From Xylophilus sp. GOD-11R (GTDB taxonomy: Bacteria; Pseudomonadota; Gammaproteobacteria; Burkholderiales; Burkholderiaceae_C): 64,000 nt of DNA. This document shows, piece by piece, positions 8,083 through 29,547 of the stretch. Every line of letters begins with the position of its first letter. Within the stretch, counting starts at the first letter, position 1. The stretch lies in NCBI RefSeq assembly GCF_033546935.1, contig NZ_CP137854.1:4774001-4838000 (forward strand), in the 5' to 3' direction. The notes under the pieces were generated by a model that worked only from the letters and a program-made list of their open reading frames with translations, did not search any database and was not told where the DNA came from. Position numbers and translations under genes: made by a program.

Positions 8083-8163
8083 GTGCCGAGGACCGGCTTG
8101 GCCGGTCCGCCAGCGCCGCCCCTGGAAGGGGAAGGCGAAGACACGAAGTGCGCAGCCTGGGGT
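8083..8163 (-). repeat. Stop-proximal repeat element, family A (copy after fusA)
   Basis: On the minus strand the element starts with CCCCAGGCT 7 nt after the fusA stop. It continues with the core GCACTTCGTGTCTTCGCC, a C4/G4 hairpin, and a second perfect hairpin GACCGGC-TTG-GCCGGTC (8091-8107). The same core occurs after corA (17706 on) and after the mlaE-like gene (22029 down). The remaining 145 nt to tuf show no gene. Confidence 0.8.
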
Positions 8164-8169
8164 CGCGCC

Positions 8170-10269
8170 TTATTTAGCGCGAGCGGCCATGATGGCTTCG
8201 GCGACGTTACGGGGAGCTTCGGCGTAGTGCTTGAACTCCATCGTGTAGGTCGCGCGGCCTTGCGACATCGAACGCAGCGTGGTCGAGTAGCCGAACATTT
8301 CCGACAGCGGGACTTCGGCCTTGATGGCCTTGCCGCCACCGACCATGTCGTCCATGCCCTGGACCATGCCGCGACGCGAGGACAGGTCGCCCATCACGTT
8401 GCCGGCGTAGTCTTCCGGCGTTTCGACTTCCACGGCCATCATCGGCTCAAGGATGACCGGGTTGGCCTTCTTGGCACCTTCCTTGAAACCGAAGATGGCG
8501 GCCATCTTGAAGGCCAGTTCGTTCGAGTCCACGTCGTGGTACGAGCCGAAGTGCAGGGTGACCTTGACGTCGACGACCGGGTAACCGGCCAGCACGCCCT
8601 GGGTCACCGCTTCGTTGATGCCCTTTTCCACGGCCGGGATGAATTCGCGCGGAACCACACCACCCTTGATCGCATCGACGAATTCGACGCCCTTGCCGGC
8701 TTCGTTTGGCTCGATCTTGAGCACCACATGGCCGTATTGGCCCTTACCGCCAGACTGGCGCACGAACTTGCCTTCGGCCTCTTCGACGGTCTTGCGGATG
8801 GTTTCGCGGTAGGCCACCTGCGGCTTGCCGACGTTGGCTTCGACGCCGAATTCACGCTTCATGCGGTCGACGATGATTTCCAGGTGGAGCTCGCCCATGC
8901 CGGAAATGATGGTCTGGCCGGATTCTTCGTCGGTCTTCACGCGGAAAGACGGATCTTCCTGCGCCAGGCGCTGCAGCGCGATACCCATCTTCTCCTGGTC
9001 GGCCTTGGTCTTGGGTTCGACGGCCTGGGAGATCACCGATTCCGGGAACACCATGCGTTCGAGGGTGACGACGGCCGACGGGTCGCACAGGGTTTCGCCC
9101 GTGGTGACTTCCTTCAGGCCCACGCAGGCGGCGATGTCGCCGGCGCGGATTTCACCCACTTCTTCGCGGTTGTTGGCGTGCATCTGCACGATACGGCCGA
9201 TACGCTCCTTCTTGCCACGAACCGGGTTGAAGACGCTGTCGCCCTTGGTCAGCACGCCGGAATAGACGCGCACGAAGGTCAGCTGGCCGACGAAGGGGTC
9301 GGTCATCAGCTTGAAAGCCAGCGCCGAGAACTTTTCGGCGTCGTCGGCCTTGCGAACCACCGGCTGGTCGTCTTCGTCGGTGCCCGAAACCGGTGGAATG
9401 TCGGTAGGAGCCGGCATGTAGTCGATCACGGCGTCGAGCATGGCCTGCACGCCCTTGTTCTTGAAGGCGGAGCCACAGAGCATCGGCTGGATCTCGCCGG
9501 CGATGGTGCGGGTACGCAGTGCCAGCTTGATTTCAGCTTCCGTCAGTTCCTCGCCTTCGAGGTACTTGTTCATGAGCTCTTCGCTGGCTTCGGCAGCGGC
9601 TTCGACCAGCTTCTCGCGGTATTCGTTGCAGACATCGGCGATGTTCGCCGGGATGTCGCCGTACTGGAAGGTGACGCCCTTGTCTTCGTCCCAGATGATG
9701 GCCTTCATCTTGACGAGATCGACGATGCCCTGGAAGTGCTCTTCGGCACCGATCGGGATCTGGATGACGACCGGGTTGGCCTTCAGGCGATCCACCATCA
9801 TCTGGCGCACGCGCAGGAAATCGGCGCCGGTACGGTCCATCTTGTTGACGAACGCGAGGCGGGGTACCTTGTACTTGTTGGCCTGGCGCCAGACGGTCTC
9901 GGACTGCGGCTGCACGCCACCCACCGCGTCGTACACCATGACGGCGCCGTCGAGCACGCGCATCGAGCGCTCGACTTCGATGGTAAAGTCGACGTGGCCC
10001 GGGGTGTCGATGATGTTGATGCGGTGCTCGTCGTAGTTCGACGCCATGCCCTTCCAGAAGCAGGTGGTGGCAGCCGAGGTGATCGTGATGCCACGCTCCT
10101 GCTCCTGCTCCATCCAGTCCATCGTGGCGGCACCGTCGTGCACTTCACCGATCTTGTGGTTCACACCGGTGTAGAACAGGATGCGCTCGGTGGTGGTGGT
10201 CTTGCCGGCGTCGATGTGCGCGGAAATACCGATGTTGCGGTAGCGCTCGATGGGGGTCTTGCGGGACAT
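8170..10269 (-). CDS. fusA: Elongation factor G
   Basis: A 699-residue translocase GTPase that moves tRNA and mRNA after peptide bond formation and acts in ribosome recycling. The P-loop AHIDAGKT is at residues 17-24, followed by DTPGHVDF and NKMDR. The start [14 protein letters not shown] at 10269 was chosen over a 12-codon extension without similarity to the family. It lies between rpsG and tuf. A long hairpin sits in its 5' leader (10292-10331) and a repeat element follows its stop. Confidence 0.99.
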
Positions 10270-10291
10270 GAAAATTACTCCGTTAACGGAC

Positions 10292-10331
10292 GGAAGCCCG
10301 CCCACCCCAGAAATGGGTGGATCGGGCTTCC
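10292..10331 (-). other. Long intercistronic hairpin between rpsG and fusA
   Basis: A perfect 9-bp outer stem (GGAAGCCCG / CGGGCTTCC, 10292-10300 with 10323-10331) encloses an inner CCCACC / GGGTGG stem. There is no T-run, so it does not look like a terminator. It ends 22 nt before the fusA start. It could be a mRNA processing, stability or translational control site. Confidence 0.6.
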
Positions 10332-10366
10332 GGCCAGTCTATTTTGAGAGACGGCTGTGACAGCTT

Positions 10367-10840
10367 TTAGAAGCGGAAGTGGCTGAAGGCCTTGTTGGCT
10401 TCTGCCATGCGGTGCACTTCGTCACGCTTCTTCATGGCGCCGCCACGGCCTTCGGTGGCTTCGAGCAGCTCGTTGGCCAGACGCTGGGCCATCGACTTCT
10501 CGCCACGCTTGCGGGCGGCTTCCTTGATCCAGCGCATCGACAGCGCCAGGCGACGCACCGGGCGCACTTCGACCGGCACCTGGTAGTTGGCGCCACCGAC
10601 GCGGCGGGACTTCACTTCGACCATGGGCTTGACGTTGTTGATGGCAACGACGAAGGCTTCCAGCGGGTCCTTGTCAGGATTCTTCTTCTCGATCAGGTCG
10701 AGCGCGCCGTAGATGATGCGCTCGGCAACGGCCTTCTTGCCGCCTTCCATGATCACGTTCATGAACTTCGAGAGTTCGACATTGCCGTACTTGGGATCCG
10801 GCAGGATTTCACGTTTAGGGACTTCGCGACGACGTGGCAT
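10367..10840 (-). CDS. rpsG: 30S ribosomal protein S7
   Basis: A 157-residue S7 protein, the assembly initiator of the 30S head and, in E. coli, the translational repressor of the str operon. The start [19 protein letters not shown] and the segment [16 protein letters not shown] are family signatures. The gap to rpsL is 157 nt, long enough for an S7-binding control site as in E. coli, though I could not identify one. Confidence 0.98.
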
Positions 10841-10997
10841 TTTTCACCTCTTGATTTGCTTCAGTTGGCACCCTTGGCGGATGCCGCGAGAGCCAGATGG
10901 AACTCTCACTTACTCGACCCGGAACATCGGGTCACTACGCTGCAACTCCGCGCCACGCGGAAAACAGCACCTTGGAAAACGAACGAAAGCGCAGGGC

Positions 10998-11375
10998 TTA
11001 CTTGGCCTTGGGCTTCTTGGCACCGTACTTGGAACGCGATTGCTTGCGATCCTTGACGCCTTGCAGGTCGAGGGAACCGCGGACGATGTGGTAACGCACA
11101 CCCGGCAGATCCTTGACGCGACCGCCACGAACCAGCACGACGCTGTGTTCCTGGAGGTTGTGGCCTTCACCGCCGATGTAGGAGATCACTTCGAAGCCAT
11201 TGGTCAGGCGGACCTTGGCGACCTTGCGCAGAGCCGAGTTAGGCTTCTTCGGGGTCGTGGTGTAGACGCGGGTGCAGACACCACGGCGCTGCGGCGAGTT
11301 TTGCATCGCGGGGCTCTTGGAGTTGGTCTTCTCGACCTCACGCCCCTGACGCACGAGCTGGTTGATGGTTGGCAT
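10998..11375 (-). CDS. rpsL: 30S ribosomal protein S12
   Basis: A 125-residue S12 protein of the decoding centre, where mutations give streptomycin resistance. The start [13 protein letters not shown] at 11375 gives the usual length; the longer in-frame upstream reading runs through the promoter. The decoding motif [18 protein letters not shown] is intact, with the conserved lysine. It is the first gene of the str transcript. Confidence 0.98.
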
Positions 11376-11458
11376 GGATAAAAACCCTGTGAAAACGTCC
11401 CTAAACGTTCTGGAAACGAAAACGTGAAACCCTTCGGCAAATTTCCGAAAAGCCCGCG

Positions 11459-11486
11459 AGTGTAGCAGCGATGCGGGGTTTGGCAA
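11459..11486 (-). promoter_or_regulatory. Promoter of the str operon (rpsL)
   Basis: On the minus strand TTGCCA (11481-11486) is 16 bp from an extended -10, TGC-TACACT (-10 at 11459-11464). The -10 is nearly the same as that of the rplC promoter. The upstream hairpin 11474-11495 overlaps the -35. Confidence 0.6.
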
Positions 11487-11495
11487 AACCCCGCG
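11474..11495 (-). terminator. Hairpin after the carboxypeptidase gene
   Basis: The inverted repeat GCGGGGTTT / AAACCCCGC with a 4-nt loop follows the stop of the D,D-carboxypeptidase gene. It lacks a clear T-run, so it is at best a weak terminator. It overlaps the proposed rpsL -35. Confidence 0.4.
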
Positions 11496-11506
11496 ACGTC
11501 AACGAC

Positions 11507-12682
11507 TCATTTGATCCAGAGACGGATCGAGTCCCAGGCCCGGCCGAGCACGCCGGCCTGCGGTACTTCCTGCAGCGCGACCAAAGGCACCTCGAGCAGC
11601 GGCTGGTCGCCGGCGGCGATACGCAGCGTGCCGACCTTCTGCCCCTTGGCGAACGGCGCGACCAACGGGTCCGGCCGCGAGACTTCGGTCTTGACCTTGC
11701 CCGCCGTGCCGGACGGCACCGCCACCACGATGGCGCCGGGCTGGCCGAGCGCCAGCGTGTTCTGGGTGCCTTTCCATACCGGCGGGCTGACGACCGCCTG
11801 GCCGCCGTCGAACAGCTTGACCGCTTCATAGGCGGTGTAGCCCCAGTTCAGCAGCTTCTGCGACTCGTTGGCGCGCGCGCTTTCGCTGGAAGTGCCGAGC
11901 ACGATGGTCAGCAGGCGGCGGCTGCCCACGCCCGGAAAGTCACGGTGCGCGGTGGCGACGAGGCAGTAGCCGGCAGCGTCGGTGTGGCCCGTCTTCAGAC
12001 CGTCGACCGTGGGGTCGCGAAACAGCAGCAGGTTGCGGTTGTTGCCGTTGGCCGCCGGGGTGCCCGGGTAGCGGTACTGCTTGATCGCGTAGTAGCCGAT
12101 GTACTCCGGAAAGTCGTGCATCAGCCGGGTGGCCAGGATGGACAGGTCACGCGCGGTGGTGGTGTGGCCGGCCTCGGTCAGGCCTTCGGGGTTGCGGTAG
12201 CTGGTGTGCTGCATGCCGAGCACCTTGGCCTGGTCGTTCATCATCTGAACGAAGCGCTCCATGCTGCCACCCACGCCCTCGGCCAGCGCCATGGTGGCGT
12301 CGTTGCCGGACTGCACGATCATGCCCTTGACCAGGTCTTCGACCGGCACCTGCATCTTGGGATCGATGAACATGCGCGAGCCGGGCATCTTCCAGGCCTT
12401 CGGGCTGACCGGGAAGGTCTGCGTCAGGGTAATCTTTTTGGACTTGAGCGCATCGAACACCAGGTAGGCGCTCATCAGCTTGGTGAGTGACGCCGGCTCG
12501 ACCGGCATGTCGATGTCCTTTTGCGCCAGGATCTGGTTGGCGGTGACGTCGAGCAGCAGATAGGAGCGCGCGGCGATCTCGGGCGGCACCGGCGTGGTCT
12601 GCGCGAGGGCGGCGGAAAAAGTGACGGGCAGGGCCAGGGCGGCCAGGACAAGCGCGCGCAGCGCCGGCAAGAAGCGGGTCAT
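11507..12682 (-). CDS. D-alanyl-D-alanine carboxypeptidase (PBP5/6 type)
   Basis: A 391-residue penicillin-binding protein that removes the terminal D-Ala from peptidoglycan pentapeptides in the periplasm. Residues 1-28 form a signal peptide ending near AALAQ. The serine-peptidase motifs are complete: SLTK (S65, K68), SGN (S125-N127) and KTG (K230-G232). A C-terminal beta domain ends in a short amphipathic-looking segment (LGRAWDSIRLWIK) of the kind that anchors PBP5 to the inner membrane. It corresponds to dacA or dacC. It lies upstream of rpsL on the same strand. Confidence 0.95.
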   Translation of the reverse strand: MTRFLPALRALVLAALALPVTFSAALAQTTPVPPEIAARSYLLLDVTANQILAQKDIDMPVEPASLTKLMSAYLVFDALKSKKITLTQTFPVSPKAWKMPGSRMFIDPKMQVPVEDLVKGMIVQSGNDATMALAEGVGGSMERFVQMMNDQAKVLGMQHTSYRNPEGLTEAGHTTTARDLSILATRLMHDFPEYIGYYAIKQYRYPGTPAANGNNRNLLLFRDPTVDGLKTGHTDAAGYCLVATAHRDFPGVGSRRLLTIVLGTSSESARANESQKLLNWGYTAYEAVKLFDGGQAVVSPPVWKGTQNTLALGQPGAIVVAVPSGTAGKVKTEVSRPDPLVAPFAKGQKVGTLRIAAGDQPLLEVPLVALQEVPQAGVLGRAWDSIRLWIK

Positions 12683-12718
12683 GGATGGGCGGGGAGCAGG
12701 GGGGATGCGGAGACGGAC

Positions 12719-13360
12719 TCAGGGCGCCGAAAGATGGCGCACGACCAAGCTTTTGAGCAGCGGCAATTGTCCGTGAAAAAAGTGCCCGACCCCGGGGACA
12801 ACCGTTACCGGCAGTGTCTGCGGACGGGCCCATTCGATTACATCGGACAGTGGCACGGTGTCGTCGGTTTCGCCATGGATGACCAGGGTGCGCTCGTGCG
12901 CCTCGGGCGGCACCGTCGCGACCGAAAAACGCGTGGTGGCGGTGCCGACGAAAACCACCTTCTGCGGCGAACGCGCGGCCCACAGGGCCTCCAGCACGTG
13001 GCTGGTGACGTAGGAGCCGAACGAGAAACCGGCGAGCGCCAGCGGGCCGTCGGGCGCGACTTGCTCCACCACCGCGAGCATGTCCTGCGCTTCGGCCTTG
13101 CCGGCGTCGTATTCGCCGGCGCTGGCCCCCACGCCGCGGAAATTGAAGCGCACCGCCGTCCAGCCGCATTGCACGAAGGCACGCGCCAGGGTCTGCACGA
13201 CCTTGTTGTCCATGGTGCCGCCGAACAGTGGATGCGGATGGGCGATGACCACCGTGCCGCGTCGCTCGACACCGGCAGAAGGTTGGTCGCGCGCGGCCTC
13301 GATGGCACCGGCGCTGCCGGTCAGCTGGAGGGCTTCGGTCTGGGCGTTCACCGATATCAC
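12719..13360 (-). CDS. Alpha/beta hydrolase
   Basis: A 213-residue serine hydrolase of the small cytoplasmic family with the N-terminal signature HPHPLFGGTMDNKVV. The nucleophile elbow is GFSFGS (S113); the acid is probably the Asp in HGETDDTVP and the base the His in GVGHFF. Members often act as esterases, but the substrate is unknown. Its ATG overlaps the stop of the ferredoxin gene by 4 nt (ATGA), so the two are co-translated. Confidence 0.85.
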   Translation of the reverse strand: MISVNAQTEALQLTGSAGAIEAARDQPSAGVERRGTVVIAHPHPLFGGTMDNKVVQTLARAFVQCGWTAVRFNFRGVGASAGEYDAGKAEAQDMLAVVEQVAPDGPLALAGFSFGSYVTSHVLEALWAARSPQKVVFVGTATTRFSVATVPPEAHERTLVIHGETDDTVPLSDVIEWARPQTLPVTVVPGVGHFFHGQLPLLKSLVVRHLSAP

Positions 13361-13716
13361 CTCCCGACGTCCGGCGGCAGGCGCAGGCGCTCGACCGGGC
13401 GGCCGTGCTTGAGATGCGACTCGACGATCTCGTCGATGTCCTCGCTGTCCACGAAGGTGTACCAGACGCCTTCCGGATAGACGACCGCGACCGGGCCGCC
13501 GGCGCAGCGGTCGAGGCAGCCCGCCTTGTTCACGCGCACGCCGCCGCGACCGGCGAGGCCTGCGGCCTTGACCTGCTTCTTGCAGTGGTCGAAGCCTTCC
13601 TTGGCGTCGTGCAGCGCGCAGCTGTCTTCTCCGTTGGCCCGCTCGTTGAGGCAGAAGAACACGTGGCGCTGGTAATACGGCGCCTCGCCCGGGGAATCGT
13701 GGGGGATATCGCTCAT
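13357..13716 (-). CDS. (2Fe-2S) ferredoxin, thioredoxin-like fold
   Basis: A 119-residue protein of the thioredoxin-like [2Fe-2S] ferredoxin family. Candidate cluster ligands are C22, C33 (or C45), C67 and C71, in the CX(n)C...CXXXC pattern; the motif GCLDRCAGGPV is typical. It is a cytoplasmic electron carrier of unknown partner. It is translationally coupled to the alpha/beta hydrolase that follows. VanZ lies just upstream on the same strand. Confidence 0.88.
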   Translation of the reverse strand: MSDIPHDSPGEAPYYQRHVFFCLNERANGEDSCALHDAKEGFDHCKKQVKAAGLAGRGGVRVNKAGCLDRCAGGPVAVVYPEGVWYTFVDSEDIDEIVESHLKHGRPVERLRLPPDVGR

Positions 13717-13726
13717 CGTGCCGATT

Positions 13727-16608
<2,882 letters not shown>

Positions 16609-16622
16609 GCAGCCGGGCCGCG

Positions 16623-17699: not shown

Positions 17700-17705
17700 G
17701 GTCTC

Positions 17706-18545
17706 CCCCAGGCTACGCACTTCGTGTCTTCGCCTACCCCCTTCCGGGGGCGGCTTGCTGGCTCGGCGTAGCCTCGCCGCCTCGCCCCTGAGGCAGTCGG
17801 CCGGCCTGCTGGCGCGGCCTCCGGCGAGGGGTTGTTCGCCCACTCTGATGCTGGCGGGCGCTGGATGGGATCGCCCCCCAGGCTACGCACTTCGTGTCTT
17901 CGCCTACCCCCTTCCGGGGGCGGATTGCTGGCTCGGCGTAGCCTCGCCGCCTCGCCCCTGAGGCAGTCGGCCGGCCTGCTGGCGCGGCCTCCGGCGAGGG
18001 GTTGTTCGCCCACTCTGATGCTGGCGGGCGCTGGATGGGATCGCCCCCCAGGCTACGCACTTCGTGTCTTCGCCTACCCCCTTTCGGGGGCGGCTTGCTG
18101 GCTCGGCGTAGCCTCGCCGCCTCGCCCCTGTGGCAGTCGGCCGGCCTGCTGGCGCGGCCTCGGGCGAGGGGTTGTTCGCCCACTCTGATGCTGGCGGGCG
18201 CTGGATAGGATCGTCCCCAGGCTACGCACTTCGTGTCTTCGCCTACCCCCTTCCGGGGGCGGCTTGCTGGCTCGGCGTAGCCTCGCCGCCTCGCCCCTGT
18301 GGCAGTCGGCCGGCCTGCTGGCGCGGCCTCCGGAGAGGGGTTGTTCGCGCGCTCTGATGCTGGCGGGCGCTGGATGGGATCGCCCCCCAGGCTACGCACT
18401 TCGTGTCTTCGCCTACCCCCTTTCGGGGGCGGCTTGCTGGCTCGGCGTAGCCTCGCCGCCTCGCCCCTGTGGCAGTCGGCCGGCCTGCTGGCGCGGCCTC
18501 CGGAGAGGGGTGTTCGCGCGCTCTGATGCCGGCGGGCTCCAGAGC
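17706..18545 (+). repeat. Tandem array of five ~170-bp repeats (family A)
   Basis: Five direct repeats start at 17711, 17881, 18051, 18220 and 18390 (first base of GGCTACGCAC), with spacing 170, 170, 169 and 170 bp. Each has the core GCACTTCGTGTCTTCGCC, a C5/G5 hairpin and a GGCCGGCC-rich second half. Units 1-2 share CTGAGGC where 3-5 have CTGTGGC; units 1-3 share TTCGCCCACTC where 4-5 have TTCGCGCGCTC. The array fills the space from the corA stop to the dienelactone hydrolase stop. There are no unique spacers, so it is not a CRISPR. Open frames inside it shift because 170 is not a multiple of 3. Confidence 0.95.
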
Positions 18546-18600
18546 GGCTTTGGCTCCGGCAGTCGGTGCGCTGCGGGCTACCTCAGCGCAGCGCCTGCCA

Positions 18601-19371: not shown

Positions 19372-20070
19372 TCAGGGGCGGGGCGGCCGCATCGGCGCGC
19401 TCGCCGCCTGCGGCGCCAGCCGGGCGAGCCAGGCCTCGATTTCGGCAGCGGCGGCGTCGGTCGCCGCCGCGAGGGCCTGCACGCCACCAGGGGCATCGGG
19501 CGTCGTCGCCGGGCGACGCACCACGAAGACCCGCTGGCCGACGAAGTTCTCGCCCTGTACGGTGTTGTCGACCAGAGTGGCGCGCAGGCGCAGCACGCCT
19601 TCGCTGCGCGACGGGCTCTCGAAGACCTGGCTGAATTCCTCCAGCTGCAGCCGCAGGATGCGCGGCAGGCCGCCTTCGACCCGGCGCTGCGCCAGCACGT
19701 CGTCGGCATCGAGGATGGGCCGGCGCTGACCCAGCGCCTCGCGCACCCGTAGCCGCACCAGTTGCGCCGGCGGCAACGCCCAACGAGCCTGCGCGTAGGG
19801 CCGCAGCTGCTGGGCGTCGGTGTATTGCAGGCGGTAGGTAATGGCGGCGGTGTCGGCCAGTGCGGCGGCGTCGACGTCGGCCAGCGCGATCGGCGGCAGC
19901 GAGATGGCGACCTCGGTGACCGAGGGCGGCGCGATGCCGGTGCCGAAGTCGTAGGAGACCGGTCGGGCCGGCTTGTCGGGCAGCACCGAGCAGGCGCCCA
20001 GCGCCAGGGTGGCGATCACGCCAGCGATGGCGGCAGTGGAAAAGCGGCGGTCGAACAGGCGAGTTTTCAT
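19372..20070 (-). CDS. ABC-type transport auxiliary lipoprotein
   Basis: A 232-residue lipoprotein of the ABC_trans_aux (PqiC-like) family. The signal peptide ends in a lipobox LGAC (cysteine at about residue 27), so it should be lipidated and probably sorted to the outer membrane. It is the last gene of an MCE lipid transport operon and overlaps the MlaD-like gene by 4 nt. PqiC-type proteins link the MCE tunnel to the outer membrane, which fits the context. Confidence 0.88.
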   Translation of the reverse strand: MKTRLFDRRFSTAAIAGVIATLALGACSVLPDKPARPVSYDFGTGIAPPSVTEVAISLPPIALADVDAAALADTAAITYRLQYTDAQQLRPYAQARWALPPAQLVRLRVREALGQRRPILDADDVLAQRRVEGGLPRILRLQLEEFSQVFESPSRSEGVLRLRATLVDNTVQGENFVGQRVFVVRRPATTPDAPGGVQALAAATDAAAAEIEAWLARLAPQAASAPMRPPRP

Positions 20071-21074: not shown

Positions 21075-21075
21075 A

Positions 21076-21924
21076 TCAATCCTCGGTGGCCACCGTGGGC
21101 GGTGGCGTGGGCGGCACGGGGGCCATGGCGCGACGACCGCGCTCGCCCTGGAAATAGTGGCGGATGAAAGGATGGTCGACCTGCGCCACCTCGCGCGGCG
21201 GCGCATCGGCGATCACCCGCCGATCAGCCAGCACCGCGACCCGGCTCGACAGTGCGAACAGGGTGTCGAGGTCGTGCGTCACCATCACGACCGTGAGGCA
21301 GAGCTCCTGGTGCAGCGAGCGCAGCAGGTCGCAGAATTCGTCGGAGGCGTTGGGATCGAGCCCGGCGGTGGGCTCGTCGAGCAGCAGCAGCGGCGGATCC
21401 ATGATCAGCGCGCGCGCCAGCGCCACCCGCTTGATCATGCCGCCCGACAGGTCCGACGGCATCTTCAGCGCGTCGGCCGCCTTCAGCCCGACCATCTGCA
21501 GCTTGACCATCGCCGCGTCGCGGGCCAGCGCGGTGGGCAGGGTGTTGAGTTCGCGCAGTGCGAAGGCCACGTTGTCGAGCACGTTGAAGGCCGAGAACAG
21601 CGCGCCTTGCTGGAACAGCATGCCCACCCGGCTCGACGCCCCGCGCCGCCCGAGCTGCGCTGCGGGCTCCCCGAGCACCTCCACCGTGCCGCGCTCGGGC
21701 GTCTCCAGCCCGAGCATCTGGCGCAGCAACACCGTCTTGCCCGTGCCCGACCCGCCGACCAGCGACACGATCTCGCCCTGCTCGATCGACAGCGCCAGGT
21801 TCTCGTGAATCACCACCCGCCGCTTGCCGGTGCCGAACGCGGTCCACAGACCCTCGATGCGCACCACCGGCCCGGTCGCCGCACCGCAAACAGGGCTGAC
21901 ATTGGCCGCCGGGCTCGAGTTCAC
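21076..21924 (-). CDS. MCE/Mla-type ABC transporter ATP-binding protein
   Basis: A 282-residue ABC ATPase. Walker A is GGSGTGKT, the signature LSGGMIKRVALARAL, and Walker B LLLLDEPTAGLDP. It energises lipid transport with the MlaE-like permease upstream and the MlaD-like protein 1 nt downstream. A GTG start at 21924 was chosen, with AAGG 7 nt before it. The frame stays open upstream, but that part reads through a repeat element (21943-22029) and is not protein-like. Confidence 0.93.
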   Translation of the reverse strand: MNSSPAANVSPVCGAATGPVVRIEGLWTAFGTGKRRVVIHENLALSIEQGEIVSLVGGSGTGKTVLLRQMLGLETPERGTVEVLGEPAAQLGRRGASSRVGMLFQQGALFSAFNVLDNVAFALRELNTLPTALARDAAMVKLQMVGLKAADALKMPSDLSGGMIKRVALARALIMDPPLLLLDEPTAGLDPNASDEFCDLLRSLHQELCLTVVMVTHDLDTLFALSSRVAVLADRRVIADAPPREVAQVDHPFIRHYFQGERGRRAMAPVPPTPPPTVATED

Positions 21925-21942
21925 CGTACGCCCTTCATGGAA

Positions 21943-22029
21943 CACCGCGGGGCCGGCTTTGCCGGACCGCTGGTGTTGCCCCCTGCGAGGGGGTGGGCGA
22001 AGCGACACGAAGTGCGCGAAGCCTGGGGG
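21943..22029 (-). repeat. Stop-proximal repeat element, family A (copy after mlaE-like gene)
   Basis: On the minus strand it starts with CCCCCAGGCT 7 nt after the permease stop. It has the core GCACTTCGTGTCGCTTCGCC, a C5/G5 hairpin and a CCGGC-TTT-GCCGG hairpin. It lies inside the MCE operon, between permease and ATPase genes. Confidence 0.8.
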
Positions 22030-22036
22030 TGAGCCG

Positions 22037-23161
22037 TCATATGCCGACGTTCCGGAAGACGATGGCGAACAAGGCATCCACCAGGATCACCACCGTGATC
22101 GACGTCACCACCGACGCCGTCGTGCCCTTGCCCAGGCTCTCGGTATTGGGCTCCACCCGCATGCCGTAGTGGCAGCCGATCAGCGCGATCAGCACACCGA
22201 ACACGATCGACTTGAGCACGGCGATGCCCAGGTTGGGCAGGCTCACCGCGCCCGGCAGCGCATTGACGAAATACGCCGGCGTGATGTTCATCGCGAGGTC
22301 GGCCGCCAGCATGCCGCCGGCCAGCGATGCCAGGATGGTCCACACGCCGATCAGCGGCATGGCGACCGCCATGGCCAGCGAGCGCGGCATCACCAGCCGG
22401 TAGCTGTGCGATATGCCCATGACCCGCATCGCATCGAGCTCCTCGGTCACCCGCATCACCCCGATCTGCGCGGTGATCGCCGAGCCCGAGCGCCCCGCTA
22501 CCAGGATCGCGGCCAGCAGCGGCCCCAGCTCGCGCACCAGCGAAATGCCGAGGATGTTGACGATGAAGGAGTCGGCGCCGTACTGCCGCAGTTGCATCGA
22601 CATCAGGTAGGCCAGCACCACCCCGATCAGAAAACCCACCAGCGCGGTGATCGGCAACGCGGTCGTGCCCATCTGGTAGAGGTGGCCGGAGAGATCGCGC
22701 CACGGCCCGTTGGCCGGCCGACGCACCAGGCGCAGCACGTCGAGCAGCAACTGGCCGATCATCAGCGTGACCGCGCGCATCTGCTCCAAAGCTTCGATCA
22801 CCCGGCGACCCAGGGATTCCAGGCCGCGCATGGCGGTGAACGGCCGTTCGGCGGGCGCATCCACGCTGAACCGCTCGACCCGCTCGAACATGGTTCGCTG
22901 GGTGTCCGACAGGTCCACATGTGCCGGCCAGCCGTGGCCCCACACGTTCCATAACAGCTGCGCACCGACATGGTCGAGCAGCCCGATGGTGCTCAGGTCC
23001 CAGTGCAGTTCCGCGTCGCCGCAGGCTCGCCGCAGCTCGGGCACCAGGCTGCTCCACACACTGCGCGAGCCCAATTGCGCCGAAGTCCAGCGCCCCACCA
23101 GCCGCATCGACGCCGGCGCGACGGATGCGTCACGGACGATGCGAGGGGAAAAGTCCTCCAT
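22037..23161 (-). CDS. MlaE family permease with N-terminal STAS-like domain
   Basis: A 374-residue inner-membrane permease. About the first 110 residues are soluble and look like a STAS/MlaB domain (HWDLSTIGLLDHVGAQLLW). The rest is a MlaE domain with five or six helices and the coupling segment SLVRELGPLLAAILVAGRSGSAITAQIG. In E. coli MlaB and MlaE are separate, so this is a natural fusion. The start MEDFSPRIVRD at 23161 was chosen by the end of similarity. It is the first gene of the operon. Confidence 0.9.
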   Translation of the reverse strand: MEDFSPRIVRDASVAPASMRLVGRWTSAQLGSRSVWSSLVPELRRACGDAELHWDLSTIGLLDHVGAQLLWNVWGHGWPAHVDLSDTQRTMFERVERFSVDAPAERPFTAMRGLESLGRRVIEALEQMRAVTLMIGQLLLDVLRLVRRPANGPWRDLSGHLYQMGTTALPITALVGFLIGVVLAYLMSMQLRQYGADSFIVNILGISLVRELGPLLAAILVAGRSGSAITAQIGVMRVTEELDAMRVMGISHSYRLVMPRSLAMAVAMPLIGVWTILASLAGGMLAADLAMNITPAYFVNALPGAVSLPNLGIAVLKSIVFGVLIALIGCHYGMRVEPNTESLGKGTTASVVTSITVVILVDALFAIVFRNVGI

Positions 23162-23373
23162 GGATTGCAAGATGCGGCGCTGGTGGAAAGTGGATGGGTG
23201 GGGAAGACGAAACGCCGGAAAAGCGCAGAGCACACGCTCTGCCCAGACCCGCGAAGGCCGTCGAGATGTTACGGCCTGCGAAAAGCCCCCGCCTGTCAGC
23301 CATAGGCGCAACCCCGTCCACCCCCTTTCGGGCGACGAGCGGATACTTTTCACCGACAAAGGGCGCGGGTAAG

Positions 23374-23553
23374 CCCCTATGCACTAAAAGTGCGCATGGG
23401 CGTAAAGTCCTGCCTGCTGCAGGGCCTTAGAGCCTCTGCGAGAGCGAGGCCCGAGGAGACATACGCCAAATCAAGAATCGAAATCCAGCCCGAGCATCCC
23501 TCGAGAGATGCGGGCAGCCTCCCGAACGCCAGGTCTGACCTGGCGTTTTTTTT
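23374..23553 (+). ncRNA. Candidate structured small RNA or leader upstream of pabBC
   Basis: This 474-nt gap between the MCE operon and pabBC holds a run of inverted repeats on the plus strand. They are: CCC-ATGCAC/GTGC-CAT-GGG (23374-23400); a closing GGCGTA/TACGCC pair (23399-23404 with 23462-23467) around CCTGC/GCAGG and GGGCCT/AGGCCC hairpins; GCCC-GCATC/GATGC-GGGC (23488-23515); and a perfect terminator. It ends 83 nt before the pabBC start. I could not match it to a known riboswitch or to 6S RNA. It may be a free small RNA or an attenuator. No confident promoter was found. Confidence 0.6.
23526..23553 (+). terminator. Rho-independent terminator before pabBC
   Basis: A perfect 9-bp stem (23526-23534 with 23538-23546, loop CTG) is followed by eight T's (23546-23553). 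No protein gene on the plus strand ends nearby, so it must serve a small RNA or leader. Confidence 0.9.
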
Positions 23554-23635
23554 CGTCCCGACGATTCCTCGCATACCGCCGATCCACCCCGTGCAGCGCT
23601 GCCGGCGGCCTAACGCCAGCAGCGAGAATGCGCCG

Positions 23636-25387
23636 ATGACCCCGCGTTCCCGCCCTCGAGCCCTCGTCGATTTCCTCTCCGAGAACGACCAGCCGCCGCT
23701 GCGCCTGGCTTTCGCCGATTGCCGCGAGATCCTGCGGGCCGACCGCATCGAAGCGGTGCGCGGCGTGCTGGAGCGCGCCGAACGGGCGTCCGCCGACGGC
23801 GCCTGGTGCGTCGGTTTTCTGCGCTACGAGGCCGCCGCCGCCTTCGATCCGGCCTTTGCCACCCATCCGGGCGAGGGGCCGCTGGCCTGGTTCGGCGTGT
23901 TCGATCGGGCCGAGCCCTGGGCCCCCGATACCGAAAACGCCACTTGGCAGGCATCACCCTGGTGCACCACGCTGGAACGCGCCGCCTTCGACGACCGCGT
24001 CGCGCGCATCCACGACGCGATCCGCGCTGGCGAGACCTACCAGATCAACCTGACCGAACCGCTGCACAGCGACTTCGACGGCGATGCCGAAGCCTGGTTC
24101 CGCGCCCTGCAACGCGCCCAGCCCATGGGCTACGGGGCCTTCGTCGACACCGGTGAGGAGCAGATCCTGTCGGTGTCGCCCGAACTGTTCTTCGACTGGC
24201 AGGACGGCCGCATCGTGTCGCGCCCCATGAAAGGCACCGCGCCGCGCGGCGAATCGGCCGAAGACGATGCCCGGCAGGCGCAGGCGCTGGTGGCGTCCGA
24301 GAAGGAGCGCGCCGAGAACCTGATGATCGTGGACCTGATCCGCAACGACCTGTCGCGCATCGCCCGCCCGCATTCGGTGCGGGTGCACCAGCTGTTCCAG
24401 CCGCGCGCCTGGCCGACGGTCTGGCAGATGACCTCCGACGTGGTGGCGCAGACGCGCGAAGGGGTACGCCTGGCCGACGTCTTCGGCGCGCTGTTTCCGT
24501 GCGGCTCGGTCACCGGCGTGCCCAAGGTGCGGGCGACCGAGCTGATCCGCTCGCTGGAGCCCCGACCACGCGGCGTGTACTGCGGCGCGGTCGGCCTGCT
24601 GCGGCCGGGCGGCGGCGCCACCTTCAACGTGCCGATCCGCACGGTGCAACTGCGCGGCGATGTCGCCGTCTGCGGCATCGGCAGCGGCATCACCATCGAC
24701 GCGCAGAGCCAGGGCGAATGGGACGAATGGCGCAACAAGCGGCGTTTTCTGGACGCGGCGCGCGAGCCCTTCGACCTGATCGAAACCCTGCGGCTGCAAG
24801 ACGGCCGTTACCGCGCTCTCGACGGCCACCTCGCGCGCATGCAGGCCAGCGCACGGCATTTCGGCTTCGGCTGGGACGATGCCGCCGCCGGTCGCGCCAT
24901 CGAGCGACTGGCCGCCGCCCACCCGGTCGGCACCTGGCGGGTGCGGCTGGTGCTGACCGCCTCGTCCGGACTGCGTGCTGAAGCCTTCGCCCTGGCCGAC
25001 ACGCCGGCGCCGGTCTCGGTGCGCCTCGCCGATCGGCCGATGGAGCCGGTGCACGCGGACTTTTTGCTGCACAAGACCAGCCGCCGCGCGCACTACGAGC
25101 GGCTGGCGCCTGCCGCCGGCAGCGGCGTCTTCGACACCTTGCTGTGGAACGCCCGCGGCGAGCTGACCGAGTTCACCCGCGGCAATGTGCTGCTGCAGAC
25201 GGCCGACGGCCGCTGGCTCACGCCGCCGCTGGCGGCCGGCGTGTTGCCGGGCGTGGCGCGTGGCCGGCTGATCGCCGAAGGCCGCATCGCCGAAGCGCCG
25301 CTGCGGGTGGAAGACCTGCGCAGTCGGCGCGCGCTGGCGTTCGTCAACAGCCTGCGCGGCTGGCTGCCGGCCGAGCTGGCCGAGTGA
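23636..25387 (+). CDS. pabB: Aminodeoxychorismate synthase component I / aminodeoxychorismate lyase fusion
   Basis: A 583-residue bifunctional protein for p-aminobenzoate synthesis in the folate pathway. Residues 1 to about 330 are a chorismate-binding (PabB) domain with EKERAENLMIVDLIRND and PCGSVTGVPKVRATEL. The C-terminal part is a class IV aminotransferase (PabC) domain with the PLP lysine in LLHKTSRRAHYE and the ending GRLIAEGRI...LRSRRALAFVNSLRGW. ATG at 23636 was chosen where similarity begins; the open frame upstream runs through the small RNA. The glutamine amidotransferase partner pabA is not in the window. Confidence 0.93.
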   Translation: MTPRSRPRALVDFLSENDQPPLRLAFADCREILRADRIEAVRGVLERAERASADGAWCVGFLRYEAAAAFDPAFATHPGEGPLAWFGVFDRAEPWAPDTENATWQASPWCTTLERAAFDDRVARIHDAIRAGETYQINLTEPLHSDFDGDAEAWFRALQRAQPMGYGAFVDTGEEQILSVSPELFFDWQDGRIVSRPMKGTAPRGESAEDDARQAQALVASEKERAENLMIVDLIRNDLSRIARPHSVRVHQLFQPRAWPTVWQMTSDVVAQTREGVRLADVFGALFPCGSVTGVPKVRATELIRSLEPRPRGVYCGAVGLLRPGGGATFNVPIRTVQLRGDVAVCGIGSGITIDAQSQGEWDEWRNKRRFLDAAREPFDLIETLRLQDGRYRALDGHLARMQASARHFGFGWDDAAAGRAIERLAAAHPVGTWRVRLVLTASSGLRAEAFALADTPAPVSVRLADRPMEPVHADFLLHKTSRRAHYERLAPAAGSGVFDTLLWNARGELTEFTRGNVLLQTADGRWLTPPLAAGVLPGVARGRLIAEGRIAEAPLRVEDLRSRRALAFVNSLRGWLPAELAE

Positions 25388-25402
25388 CGGAGCCGCCGCC
25401 GT

Positions 25403-27343
25403 TCAGGGCGCGGCGAGCGTGATGTCCTCGACCTTGCGCGGCGTGCCGATCGGTGCGGAGCTCTTGCCGATGCGGGTGGCGGCAATGTCTTCCTCGCTCG
25501 GGTAGAGGCCCGCCAGCCAGTAGTCCAGCACCCGCCGTGCGATGGGCGCTGCCGCGCCGGTGCCCCAGCCCGCGTTCTCGACGATCACCGCCAGCGCGAT
25601 CTTGGGGTTCTGCGCCGGGCCGAAGGCCATGTAGAGCGAATGGTCGCGCTGGTGTTCTTCGAGGGCCTTGGCGTTGTACTTGGTGTTCTGCGCCTGGGTC
25701 ACCGCCTGCGCGGTACCGGTCTTGCCCGCCGACACATAAGCTGCGCCGGCGAACACGCCGCGTGCCGTGCCGCCGGTGGTCACCGCGACCAGGCCGGCGC
25801 GTACCGCATCCAGGTTGGACCGTTTGAAGCCGAGGTCGATCGCCGGTGGCTGCGGCACTTCGGACAGCGTGCCCGTCACCGGGTCGCGCACCGCGCGCAC
25901 CAGGTGCGGCCGGTGCTTGATGCCGCCGTCGGCCAGGATCGACGTGGCCTGCGCCACCTGCAGCATGGTGAAGTTGTTGTAGCCCTGGCCGATGCCCAGC
26001 GAGATGGTTTCGCCCGCATACCACTTGCGCTGCTCGGGGCGCTTGTAAGTGCGCCGTTTCCAGTCGGTGCTGGGCAGCACGCCGGTCACTTCGCCCGGCA
26101 GGTCGATGCCGGTCACCTGGCCGAAACCCAGCGGCGCCATGAAATCATGGATCGCATCCACACCCAGCTCGTTGGCCAGCGAATAGAAGTACACGTTGGA
26201 CGACAGCATGATCGCCCGCTGCAGGTCGACCCCGCCCAGGTAGCCTTCCGGGCTGCCGAACCGGTGCCCGGCGAACATGTAGAAGCCCGGGTCGTTGATG
26301 ACGGTGCCTGGCGTGCGCTTGCCCGTTTCCAATCCGGCCAGGCCCATGAAAGGCTTGTAGGTGGAGCCGGTCGGATAGGTGCCGCGCAGCGCCCGGTTGA
26401 GCAACGGCCGGTCGTAGGATTCGTTGAGCGCGGCCCAGCTTTCCTGGTCGATGCCGTCGACGAAAAGATTGGGGTCGAAGGTCGGCTTGCTCACGAAGGC
26501 AAGGATCTCGCCGGTGTTCGGATCGATCGCCACCAGCGCGCCGCGCCGGTCGCCGAAGAGCTCTTCCACCATCTGCTGCAGCTTGATGTCGATCGACAGC
26601 TGCACCGTCTGGCCCGGCGTGGCCGCGTGCGTGGCCAGGCGCCGCACCGCACGGCCGCCGGCCGAGGTTTCCATTTGCTCCACGCCGGTCGTGCCGTGCA
26701 ACTGGCGCTCGAAACTCTGCTCCACCCCGAGCTTGCCGATGTGATCGGTACCGCGGTAGTTGGACGAGTCCTCGGAGTCCTCGATGCGTTCCTTCTCGCG
26801 CTGGTTGATTCGGCCGATGTAGCCGATGACGTGGCTGGCCAGGTCGCCGAAGGGGTAGTTGCGGAACAGCCGCGCTTTGATCTCCACGCCCGGGAACTTG
26901 AAGCTCTGCGCCGCGAACTTGGCCACCTCGGTGTCGGACAGCCGGGTGCGGATCGGCACCGACTCGAAGTTGCGCGATTCCTCGGTCAGCTTCTTGAAGC
27001 GGCGACGGTCACGCGGCGTGATCTCCACCAGCGCAGCCAGGCGCGAGATGGTGTCTTCGAGATCGCCCGCCTTCGACGGCGTGATCTCCAGCGTGTAGGC
27101 CGAGTAGTTGGTGGCCAGCACCACCCCGTTGCGGTCGAGGATCAGCCCCCGATTGGGCACGATAGGCACCACCGCCGTCCGGTTGCTCTCCGCCTGCTCG
27201 GCCAGGTCCTCGTGCCGCACGATCTGCAGATAGATCAGCCTGCTGACCAGCAGCCCGAAGCAGAACAGCATCAGCAATGCCACAGCCAGGATCCGGCGCT
27301 TGAACCGCGCCAGCTCCATCTCGGTGCTGCGGATTTCGGTCAT
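25403..27343 (-). CDS. mrdA: Penicillin-binding protein 2
   Basis: A 646-residue peptidoglycan transpeptidase of the rod-shape elongation machinery. There is one N-terminal membrane helix (about residues 17-37), a dimerisation domain, and a transpeptidase domain with GSTYKPF (SxxK), SSN and KTGTAQ motifs. The start MTEIRSTEMELARFKRR at 27343 was chosen. It is downstream of mreBCD, as expected, but the gap to mreD is 388 nt and filled with repeats. The usual partner rodA does not follow: pabBC converges instead. Confidence 0.96.
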   Translation of the reverse strand: MTEIRSTEMELARFKRRILAVALLMLFCFGLLVSRLIYLQIVRHEDLAEQAESNRTAVVPIVPNRGLILDRNGVVLATNYSAYTLEITPSKAGDLEDTISRLAALVEITPRDRRRFKKLTEESRNFESVPIRTRLSDTEVAKFAAQSFKFPGVEIKARLFRNYPFGDLASHVIGYIGRINQREKERIEDSEDSSNYRGTDHIGKLGVEQSFERQLHGTTGVEQMETSAGGRAVRRLATHAATPGQTVQLSIDIKLQQMVEELFGDRRGALVAIDPNTGEILAFVSKPTFDPNLFVDGIDQESWAALNESYDRPLLNRALRGTYPTGSTYKPFMGLAGLETGKRTPGTVINDPGFYMFAGHRFGSPEGYLGGVDLQRAIMLSSNVYFYSLANELGVDAIHDFMAPLGFGQVTGIDLPGEVTGVLPSTDWKRRTYKRPEQRKWYAGETISLGIGQGYNNFTMLQVAQATSILADGGIKHRPHLVRAVRDPVTGTLSEVPQPPAIDLGFKRSNLDAVRAGLVAVTTGGTARGVFAGAAYVSAGKTGTAQAVTQAQNTKYNAKALEEHQRDHSLYMAFGPAQNPKIALAVIVENAGWGTGAAAPIARRVLDYWLAGLYPSEEDIAATRIGKSSAPIGTPRKVEDITLAAP

Positions 27344-27442
27344 GGCAGAGCCTCCGGCGCGAGGGCGATGCGCAATCGACCGGCACCGGCGGGCGCCCTC
27401 CCGCACTCCACCGCCGCGCGAGGCGCCACCCGGCGGCCGCCG

Positions 27443-27725
27443 CCGGGCCGCCCCAAGGCGAGCCGCGCCTTCCCCTCGGGGGATGGCGAATCACACGAAG
27501 CCGCAAGCGCAGTGAAAAGCCGAGGGGCTCGCGGCACGCCGCCGGGCCGCCCCAAGGCGAGCCGCGCCCTCCCCTCGGGGGATGGCGAATTACACGAAGC
27601 CGCAAGCGCAGTGAAAAGCCGAGGGGCTCGCGGCACGCCGCCGGGCCGCCCCAAGGCGAGCCGCGCCTTCCCCTCGGGGGATGGCGAATTACACGGAGCC
27701 GCAGGCGCAGTGAAAAGCCGAGGGG
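27443..27725 (-). repeat. Tandem array of three 99-bp repeats (family B) between mreD and mrdA
   Basis: Three near-identical direct repeats have CCGGGCCGCC at 27443, 27542 and 27641, an exact 99-bp period. Read on the minus strand, the array starts CCCCTCGGCT 6 nt after the mreD stop, with the core CTTCGTGTAATTCGCC and a C5/G4 hairpin. The core resembles family A. Because 99 is a multiple of 3, frames stay open through it, but none looks like a gene. The region 27344-27442 shows nothing else clear. Confidence 0.93.
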
Positions 27726-27731
27726 CCATAG

Positions 27732-28244
27732 TCACAACGGGCGGTTCTCGTCGCGATCGGGGGCGCGACGCTGGGGCGCCAGCAACACCACGCTCAGCGG
27801 CACCCACAGCAACGACTCGAGCAGGGGCGCGGCCAGCACGCCCCAGCCAGGCAGCGACGCACCGAGGATCAGCCGGATCACCGTCTGCAAGGCATGCGCA
27901 CCGACGAACAACGGCAGCAACTGCACCGCCTGCAGCGGAATGCCGAACCACAGCAGCCGGCGCTGCAGGCTCACGCCCAGGTAGACCATGACGGTGTAAA
28001 TCAGCGCGTTCTGCCCAAGCAGCGCCGCGTGCTGCACATCCACGCACAGCCCCAGCACGAAGGCAGCGCCCATGCCCACCCGCGAGGGCTGGTGCACGCT
28101 CCAGAAGACCAGCACCAGCATCAGCACGTCGGGCACCCAGCCGGAGCGGCCGAGCGGCAGCAGCGCCACCAGCAGGCCGACGAACAGCGTGCTCCAGATG
28201 AAGACCGGGTTGACCGGCAGCAGGAGTTGTTGTGCGCGTGCCAT
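27732..28244 (-). CDS. mreD: Rod shape-determining protein MreD
   Basis: A 170-residue integral membrane protein with about five helices, part of the MreBCD-PBP2-RodA complex that directs sidewall peptidoglycan synthesis. The starting region NPVFIWSTLFVGLLVALLPLG and length fit the family. It is 2 nt from mreC, so the two are translationally coupled. A repeat array follows its stop. Confidence 0.92.
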   Translation of the reverse strand: MARAQQLLLPVNPVFIWSTLFVGLLVALLPLGRSGWVPDVLMLVLVFWSVHQPSRVGMGAAFVLGLCVDVQHAALLGQNALIYTVMVYLGVSLQRRLLWFGIPLQAVQLLPLFVGAHALQTVIRLILGASLPGWGVLAAPLLESLLWVPLSVVLLAPQRRAPDRDENRPL

Positions 28245-28246
28245 GG

Positions 28247-29185
28247 TCAGGGAGCCGGTGTGACGCGGGGAGGCAGCAGGCGGCGCTTGCTCTCGGCCGG
28301 CGCCGGATCTTCGGCGGGTCGTGGCGGAATCTGGTCACTCAGAGGTTGCAGCACCAGCACGTGGCGCGCGCCCTGGGTGCTGGCCAGCGGCAGGCAGTGG
28401 ATGCGGGCGAAGGCCGATTCGGAGCGGCGCTCCACATGGCTCACCTTGGCCACCGGCAGGCCGGCCGGATAGACGCCGTCGACACCGCTGGTGGTGAGCA
28501 GGTCGCCCTCTTCCACATCGGCGTTGCCCGGCATGAACCGCAGTTCGAGCGCGCCGCCGCCGGCGGGATCGCCGTAGGCCACGCTGCGCGCGCCGGTGCG
28601 GGTGTTGAGGACGGGAATGGCGAAGTCGCGATCGACCAGCAGCGACACTTCGGCCAGCAGTGGATGCAGCCGGGTGACCTGGCCCAGCACGCCGGTCTCG
28701 TCGAGCACCGGCGCACCGAGCTCAACGCCCTGCAGCTGACCACGGTCGATGATGACGCGGCGGGTGTAGGGGTCGGGCGCGTCGTACAGCACCTCGGCCG
28801 CCTGCTCGGGTGCGTTGAGCCGCTGGCGCAAGGCCAGCAGGTCGCGCAGCCGGCGGTTCTCGAGCAGCAGTTCCTCGACCTGGCTGGCGCGCTGCGCCTG
28901 CTGGAGGATGTTGCGGCGCGCCGTGTCTTCCACCGATTGCGCCGAGCGGACGGTGGCCAGGTAATCGGTGGACTGGCGGCCGATGCGCACCGGCTGCAGG
29001 GCGAGCCACTGCACCGGATACAGGATGGTGGACAGCGCCGAGCGGACCGGCGGCGTGATCCCCAGGCGGGTGTCGGCCACCATCAGGAACAGCGACAGCG
29101 CCGTCAGCACCGCCAGCGTGGACCGCGCGGAAGGGCCCTGCTTGAAGAAGGGCGGCGCGGTGCGATCCAGGGTACCCAGGGGCAT
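28247..29185 (-). CDS. mreC: Rod shape-determining protein MreC
   Basis: A 312-residue periplasmic scaffold with one N-terminal membrane helix (about residues 25-42), a coiled-coil (ILQQAQRASQVEELLLENRRL) and two beta domains with the family signature DRGQLQGVELGAPVLDETGVLGQV. The C-terminal tail after residue 280 is Pro/Ala/Arg-rich and probably flexible. It lies between mreB and mreD. Confidence 0.95.
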   Translation of the reverse strand: MPLGTLDRTAPPFFKQGPSARSTLAVLTALSLFLMVADTRLGITPPVRSALSTILYPVQWLALQPVRIGRQSTDYLATVRSAQSVEDTARRNILQQAQRASQVEELLLENRRLRDLLALRQRLNAPEQAAEVLYDAPDPYTRRVIIDRGQLQGVELGAPVLDETGVLGQVTRLHPLLAEVSLLVDRDFAIPVLNTRTGARSVAYGDPAGGGALELRFMPGNADVEEGDLLTTSGVDGVYPAGLPVAKVSHVERRSESAFARIHCLPLASTQGARHVLVLQPLSDQIPPRPAEDPAPAESKRRLLPPRVTPAP

Positions 29186-29420
29186 GGCGGAGTGAAGGAA
29201 GAGGGGATCGAACCCGGTGACGGGAAGCGTCGGATGATAGGGGAGCCCGGCGGTGCGCGAAAGGTTCCCCGCGGCCGGGGAGGGCTAGCGGCGGTGCGAG
29301 GACTACCGCACGGTTCGCCACCATTCGGATCCTTGGGGCGGCTCTCGCCCAACATGCCTGACTTCCCCGGCAGCGGTCGAGGCGGTTCACGGCAGCAGTC
29401 GGGAAATTCCACCAGCCCCG

Positions 29421-29547
29421 GCCGCCGGGCCGCCGGGGCCGCCCCAAAGCCCGGGGCTCCATCCCTTCGGGGATGCGAAATTACACGGAGCCGGAGGCGG
29501 AGTGAAAAGCCGATGGGCTCAACTCACCGCAGTGAAAAGCCAAGGGG
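29421..29547 (-). repeat. Repeat element, family B (copy after mreB)
   Basis: On the minus strand it begins CCCCTTGGCTTTTCACTGCGG 4 nt after the mreB stop and then repeats the GGCTTTTCACT start before a core with CTCCGTGTAATTTCGC and a C4/G3 hairpin. It matches the 99-bp repeats after mreD. The rest of the 366-nt gap to mreC (29186-29420) shows no gene. Confidence 0.75.

What the first reader, a model, noticed from the sequence alone, without database searches (positions are those of the whole stretch)
8083..29547. Dispersed repeat family that always begins 4-7 nt after a stop codon, on the coding strand
Five genes in this window (fusA, corA, mlaE-like, mreD, mreB) are followed by related elements that start CCCC(C/T)(A/C/T)GGCT at 7, 6, 7, 6 and 4 nt after the stop, always in the sense orientation. 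All carry a core like CTTCGTGT-(2-4)-TTCGCC-NN-CCCC and a C/G hairpin. Two sub-families (A and B) differ outside the core. Constant position and strand suggest a 3'-UTR function (mRNA stability, termination, a protein or RNA-chaperone site) or an element that inserts at stop codons. I know of no named family with this rule.
Basis: partly seen in the sequence, partly recalled or inferred. Interest (0 to 1): 0.8.

Follow-up and report, generated by a model that had tools for sequence, protein, structure and literature searches.

The report
Hairpin repeat locked behind stop codons
A roughly 100-letter mobile DNA repeat with three hairpins, scattered through a group of soil and water bacteria, sits mostly directly after the stop signal of genes and in the reading direction of the gene, which points to a role at the ends of messages or to a very unusual way of settling in the genome.

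Summary
Confirmed and extended. The element (about 100 nt: CCCCCAGGCT, hairpin H0 in GGC...GCC, C/G hairpin H1, long hairpin H2) has at least 129 model hits in this genome. Of 77 array heads or single copies examined, 61 begin within 15 nt of a sense stop codon, against 0 of 77 in the antisense control. The rule repeats in G006 (44 of 53) and in named genomes, mostly Variovorax (74 of 85). Orthologous sites show gain or loss between species, often inside operons. At mreB and fusA it stands where relatives carry an intrinsic terminator. The 5' module next to the stop changes five to six times more slowly than silent sites, but H2 shows about as many A-C as G-U mispairs, so nothing in it betrays RNA-level selection. 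It is no canonical terminator, and no REP transposase is flanked by it. Best reading: a mobile REP-like repeat kept behind stop codons as an intercistronic or 3'-end mRNA element. It may belong to the published BRE repeat (PMC3110155), whose sequence I could not compare; the stop-codon rule is not in the parts of that paper I saw.

The parts
8076..8162 (-). Type A element, 7 nt after the fusA stop (8172-8170), between fusA and tufA
   Evidence: Sequence; EF-G by NCBIfam; orthologous sites
8163..8169 (-). Gap GGCGCGA between the fusA stop and the element
   Evidence: across copies such gaps resemble suffixes of a longer 5' end, TGGCTCN
17705..18537 (+). Tandem array of about 4.9 type A units (170 bp), first unit 5 nt after the stop of the corA-like gene (17697-17699)
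21934..22029 (-). Type A element (GC-extended H0), 7 nt after the stop of the mlaE-like gene
   Evidence: gene family
27433..27725 (-). Three tandem type B units (99 bp), first unit 6 nt after the mreD stop, between mreD and mrdA
29428..29547 (-). Type B element (truncated copy plus fuller copy), 4 nt after the mreB stop, between mreB and mreC
   Evidence: orthologous sites

Best explanation
It is a non-autonomous, REP-like mobile repeat of about 100 nt: a C-rich 5' module that holds hairpin H0, then H1, then H2. It spreads in Comamonadaceae and is kept mostly in sense, directly after stop codons. Shown: position, strand, insertion or loss at orthologous sites, a conserved fold, and slow change of the 5' module. 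Inferred: it works in the mRNA. Placed mostly 6-19 nt behind the stop, H0 would lie at the leading edge of the terminating ribosome. H0-H1-H2 would then block 3'-to-5' exonucleases, protect the upstream cistron, and lower or uncouple expression of the next gene without ending transcription completely.
For: 61 of 77 heads or singletons follow a sense stop within 15 nt, antisense 0 of 77; 44 of 53 in G006 and 36 of 38 other Xylophilus copies examined, of 42 found; 74 of 85 in named genomes. Among 158 stop-linked copies (a set chosen for being near a stop), 113 are followed by a co-directional gene and 45 by a convergent one; the gap stays at 13 nt or less in 26 of the 27 with more than 150 nt of room downstream. 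H0 begins 6-19 nt after the stop in 173 of 176. The 5' module changes at 11 of 561 sites against 131 of 1035 fourfold sites and 76 of 563 flank sites (14 pairs, not independent; in the 4 pairs where neither copy was found by motif: 4 of 164, 37 of 294, 21 of 156). The element stands in for an intrinsic terminator at mreB and fusA.
Against: No expression data. In H2, G-U and A-C mispairs are about equal (44 and 46 of 3225 cells, 215 distinct H2; 56 and 49 at a looser cut), which is not what selection on an RNA hairpin should leave. Empty orthologous sites are common (42 of 60 by my reading; 26 of 35), so no single copy is essential. Gene conversion among copies could also slow the change of the 5' module.
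Confidence: 0.45

Rival explanations
1. A spreading, U-tract-less terminator or attenuator: the C-rich 5' module works as a Rho loading site freed when the ribosome leaves at the stop, and H1/H2 protect the new 3' end.
For: The first 38 nt are 49% C and 20% G and the 5' module is the most conserved part. At mreB, 5 Variovorax genomes have a type A element and Xylophilus Leaf220 a type B one, where 18 other Variovorax and one Pseudacidovorax have an intrinsic terminator. At fusA, 4 Xylophilus genomes have the element and 3 a terminator-like hairpin.
Against: Many copies lie between genes that in relatives abut or overlap and would need read-through (cysD-cysN, sspA-sspB, ruvX-pyrR). Most empty orthologous sites have no terminator. 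H0 covariation suggests that the C-rich stretch is paired.
Confidence: 0.25
2. A purely selfish element with no host function. Insertions survive only where they break neither a gene nor a ribosome-binding site, and the insertion machinery (perhaps stem-loop replacement, as described for IS1272) favours gene 3' ends.
For: Presence or absence between related species; tandem arrays; hairpins kept as palindromes with G-U about equal to A-C; no terminator hairpin left where the element sits at mreB and fusA, like the inverted-repeat replacement of IS1272 (PMC5678879, abstract and passages).
Against: Does not explain the sense-only orientation (0 of 77 antisense), nor the lock to the stop where there is ample room downstream (26 of 27), nor the slow change of the 5' module. 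Most empty sites have no evident stem-loop to replace.
Confidence: 0.2
3. It tunes translation of the upstream gene: the structure within 15 nt of the stop stalls the terminating ribosome, as reported for E. coli REPs.
For: Distance matches the 15-nt limit reported for E. coli REPs (PMC12306157, passages); H0 lies mostly 6-19 nt after the stop.
Against: fusA, a highly expressed gene (recalled), carries it, which fits poorly with ribosome stalling. No test in this group was found.
Confidence: 0.1

Closest known systems
BRE, Beta-proteobacterial repeat element (Hot et al. 2011, PMC3110155)
   Same: About 90 bp, GC-rich, partly in tandem, mostly intergenic, in Bordetella and in Comamonadaceae (Polaromonas, Rhodoferax, Acidovorax, Delftia); the listed Bordetella loci lie between co-directional or convergent genes (section 14 read).
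   Different: Sequence not available to me, so identity is untested. The section and passages I saw state no stop-codon distance or strand rule ('stop codon' occurs 0 times in the main text), and report some copies inside coding sequences.
REP / BIME elements with RAYT transposases
   Same: High copy, palindromic, intergenic, mostly downstream of genes; some E. coli REPs lie within 15 nt of a stop (passages).
   Different: About 100 nt with three hairpins rather than 20-40 bp; no GTAG or CGTC foot in the consensus; arrays head to tail (one close opposite-strand pair seen); no Y1 gene with the element beside it in nine loci. Most copies are at a stop, against 446 of 4,072 predicted E. coli REPs, or 260 of 496 in an earlier count quoted there (PMC12306157).
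Intrinsic terminators
   Same: Occupy the same place after mreB and fusA in relatives.
   Different: No U-tract; sequence-related copies at many loci; often between co-directional genes.
IS1272 inverted-repeat-replacing transposition (PMC5678879)
   Same: A mobile element that replaces a stem-loop without target duplication (abstract and passages).
   Different: IS1272 carries its own transposase; here most empty sites show no evident stem-loop.

Membership tests
REP (GTAG/CGTC-tagged, RAYT-associated) | 20-40 bp unit with a GTAG or CGTC tag at the foot of a hairpin | tested here: not met
   Consensus of 60 copies is about 100 nt with three hairpins and no such tag; definition from the abstract and passages of PMC3733652
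REP (GTAG/CGTC-tagged, RAYT-associated) | A RAYT (Y1_Tnp) gene flanked by the repeat | tested here: not met
   Y1_Tnp found in 9 of 13 genomes (8 over the cut-off), 0 in G006 with its 53 motif copies; no model match up to E = 0.1 in the 2.5-3.1 kb around the nine Y1 genes
REP (GTAG/CGTC-tagged, RAYT-associated) | Neighbouring copies in alternating orientation (BIME) | tested here: not met
   Arrays are head to tail on one strand; among 124 own-genome hits only one pair lies within 300 nt on opposite strands
BRE (PMC3110155) | Sequence similarity to the Bordetella bprJ repeat | not testable with these tools
   Alignment is in a figure and supplementary files that are not available; the sequence strings I looked for are not in the main text
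BRE (PMC3110155) | About 90 bp, partly tandem, intergenic, in Comamonadaceae | tested here: met
   description read
Intrinsic (Rho-independent) terminator | GC-rich hairpin followed by a run of U | tested here: not met
   No terminator-like site on the sense strand within the four elements or arrays of window 7900-27800; 0 of 38 sites that a script scored as filled had one within 250 nt (loops up to 8 only; two of the 38, L354 and L383, are false calls by eye)
Rfam RNA families | Match to one of 4227 covariance models | tested here: not met
   No match at the elements at gathering threshold in the window, nor up to E = 1 at the elements of 5 loci

The most novel reading that the evidence does not exclude
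The element's settling in the genome is itself tied to translation: copies are laid down, or selected, exactly at in-frame stop codons, in sense, with the element's own 5' end trimmed back to the stop, so that it acts as a portable 3' end which can take the place of an intrinsic terminator or split an operon.
Probability: 0.2. Interest if true: 0.85.

Novelty: new variant of a known kind. Interest (0 to 1): 0.66.

Why it matters
Dispersed bacterial repeats are usually described as loosely intergenic. Here position and strand are fixed to within a few bases of the stop codon, in well over a hundred copies and several genera, and filled and empty versions of the same operon exist in nature. That makes the old question of what stop-proximal repeats do to mRNA directly testable with natural pairs of strains. 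It also raises the question of how a mobile sequence finds, or is kept at, in-frame stop codons.

Tried and rejected
A first codon model trained on long ORFs picked wrong frames and was replaced. RNAalifold on 60 copies showed almost no variation in H0; variants from more loci were needed to see H0 covary. A first script for mispairs found only 2 copies because of its regular expression and was redone; there 18 of the 44 G-U cells come from one pair position. The same test on H0 was too noisy to use (567 loose matches, many false). The terminator scan allows loops up to 8 and so misses most mreB terminators, and its filled/empty calls are imperfect; the mreB and fusA counts rest on my reading. 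A strict type B pattern found only the four window copies, so type B was not counted genome-wide. Mobility by a neighbouring RAYT was rejected; help in trans was not excluded. In one search the 5' flank of L451 was misplaced by the script, so one search was run over the whole loci. A replication-strand bias was not tested. Stop codon usage differs mildly from control genes, but overlapping genes, which favour TGA, may explain it.

Papers: abstract starts or passages only for PMC12306157, PMC2817692, PMC3733652, PMC5678879, PMC1590033 and PMC2759123; section 14 and passages for PMC3110155; other listed papers only as search listings. That the stop-codon rule was not found in print rests (open-licence PMC papers only). 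'Ribosome leading edge' and 'fusA highly expressed' are recalled, from no call.
Full report
WHAT IS THERE. The corA copy heads a 170-bp tandem array and the mreD copy a 99-bp one. The window lies in a 5.13-Mb, one-contig genome. Its genus mate G001 has mreB at the same contig coordinates as the genome holding the Xylophilus sp. Leaf220 locus, so the genus is most likely Xylophilus (inference).

GENOME-WIDE RULE. A strict core pattern hits 51 times in this genome, with 0 for the reversed control, and in 7 of 7 genomes of the genus, but in 0 of 33 genomes of other genera. A sequence model of the 5' module gives 129 hits in this genome (a lower bound, as only 150 candidates were scored). Of these, 124 had sequence; 47 are later copies in arrays (same strand, within 260 nt). 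Of 77 heads or singletons, 61 start -3 to +15 nt from a sense stop, 6 at 16-30 nt (at least two behind a partial copy), 4 further off (most behind another copy or partial copy, by eye), and 6 without a called stop. Measured the same way on the antisense side: 0 of 77 within 30 nt. By the strict pattern, 44 of 53 copies in G006 and 36 of 38 examined copies (of 42 found) in the other Xylophilus genomes have their core within 35 nt of a sense stop; in the own genome 22 of 51, most of the rest being later array copies. Of 88 copies there, 85 were usable, and 74 of these begin 0-13 nt after a sense stop (the Leaf220 locus is also in the Xylophilus set). Gene ends in these counts come from a codon model of mine. 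In four plasmid records with their own annotation, CCCC begins 9, 4 and 11 nt after an annotated CDS end in three, and the fourth copy follows a truncated one that begins 6 nt after; of three unannotated plasmid hits, two follow a called stop and one does not.

The lock is not just lack of room. Among 158 stop-linked copies with a called next gene (a set selected for nearness to a stop), 27 have more than 150 nt free downstream, and 26 of these still have a gap of 13 nt or less. The gap is not random sequence: right-justified it reads TGGCTCN, the letters that also precede CCCCC inside several arrays. So the element's own 5' end seems to run up to the stop and to be cut there at varying points.

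ANATOMY. From 5' to 3': CCCCCA; H0, a hairpin closed by GGC/GCC; H1, CCCCC/GGGGG; H2, a long hairpin; then a few nt of weaker consensus. Some copies, in the corA array for one, have a different 3' part. Sixty copies align along their length. Eleven of 22 predicted pairs have changes on both sides, ten of them in H2. H0 has 87 distinct forms among 330 copies, and most fold into GGC-hairpin-GCC; they include compensatory pairs and replaced hairpins, and the type B form is a longer H0. Rfam has no match at the elements. A related 5' module with another 3' part was found in one genome of another family, G285; one of its four copies is near a stop. In 60 family genomes the model reached 10, in 9 of 59 genera; in 200 order genomes 3, two of them this genome and G001 (both with strict filters, so lower bounds).

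MOBILITY. At 60 orthologous ends of 22 G006 genes, 18 carry an element by my reading and 42 do not. At 35 orthologous ends of 9 Variovorax CAN15 genes, 9 carry one (one decayed, one type B) and 26 do not. Examples are sspA-sspB, yqgE-ruvX, ruvX-pyrR and cysD-cysN (names recalled from the protein ends). In empty sites the two genes often abut or overlap; in filled ones the element sits between the stop and the next gene's start region. At one site the empty relative has the post-stop sequence ACACCTGAATCTGC, and in the filled relatives much the same sequence lies behind the element, as insertion right after the stop predicts. The mreD-mrdA junction has type A in CAN15, type B in V. boronicumulans, and nothing in three others. 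A Y1 transposase gene lies upstream of gltB (name recalled from the protein start) in nine of 13 genomes; no element lies in the 2.5-3.1 kb around it, and G006 has no Y1 gene.

TERMINATOR SITES. After mreB, 29 named genomes show: element in 6, intrinsic terminator in 19, neither in 4 (read). In Xylophilus, 4 have type B and 2 a terminator (Leaf220 is in both sets). After fusA, 4 of 7 have the element and 3 a terminator-like hairpin, one with a weak T-run. So at these two junctions the element takes the terminator's place. Elsewhere empty sites mostly have no terminator, and 113 of 158 stop-linked copies precede a co-directional gene, so it is unlikely to be a complete terminator everywhere.

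CONSTRAINT. In 14 pairs of orthologous copies (not independent), the 5' module differs at 11 of 561 sites, H1/H2 at 49 of 800, the 45-nt flank at 76 of 563, and fourfold sites of the gene at 131 of 1035. The bias from finding copies by motif does not explain this: in the four pairs where neither copy was so found the figures are 4 of 164, 12 of 228, 21 of 156 and 37 of 294 (one decayed copy, L420, was not among the pairs, and the pairs were chosen by hand). Against an RNA role of H2: among 215 distinct H2 sequences, 3085 of 3225 cells are Watson-Crick, 44 G-U and 46 A-C (56 and 49 at a looser cut). Selection on an RNA hairpin should favour G-U. H2 may therefore be kept, or recently copied, as a DNA palindrome, while the stop-proximal module is the constrained part.

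HOW IT WORKS, BEST GUESS. A mobile hairpin repeat kept behind stop codons, acting in the transcript next to the terminating ribosome (H0 begins 6-19 nt after the stop in 173 of 176 stop-linked copies): an exonuclease block and an insulator between cistrons, perhaps partly an attenuator. Rivals are a Rho-type terminator (the first 38 nt are 49% C, 20% G), a selfish element with a strange insertion rule, and stop-proximal ribosome stalling as reported for E. coli REPs (passages of PMC12306157).

KNOWN? The nearest named family is BRE (PMC3110155; section 14 read): about 90 bp, tandem, in Bordetella and Comamonadaceae. The sequence could not be compared. The stop rule is not in the parts I saw, nor in the searches listed under Tried and rejected.

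Noticed in passing
window 15330-15425 (-): Rfam anti-hemB (RF02837) match just above its gathering score, 50.2 against 49.5 bits.
   Followed up: no
L450-L458: A Y1 (RAYT-like) transposase gene, one match per genome, sits directly upstream of gltB (name recalled from the protein start) in Variovorax, Xylophilus and two other genera, with TCTGACCC-type sequences in its flanks rather than the element.
   Followed up: partly
window 7940-8060 and L274-L280: The fusA-tufA spacer carries a conserved GTCTGC...GCAGAC stem in the seven Xylophilus genomes, with or without the element.
   Followed up: no
L221, L066 and other G006 loci: An ACATCC sub-family has an extra 3' hairpin, GGCCTGCTCCGCGGCC, shared between Xylophilus G006 and Pseudacidovorax.
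   Followed up: no
genome G005: No close mreB ortholog was found in this draft genome (best match 26% identity); it may be missing from the assembly.
   Followed up: no
window 27433-27725 and Variovorax loci L399, L447, L157: The mreB-mreC and mreD-mrdA junctions carry elements in different genera, of type A in some and type B in others, which suggests separate insertions at the same place.
   Followed up: partly
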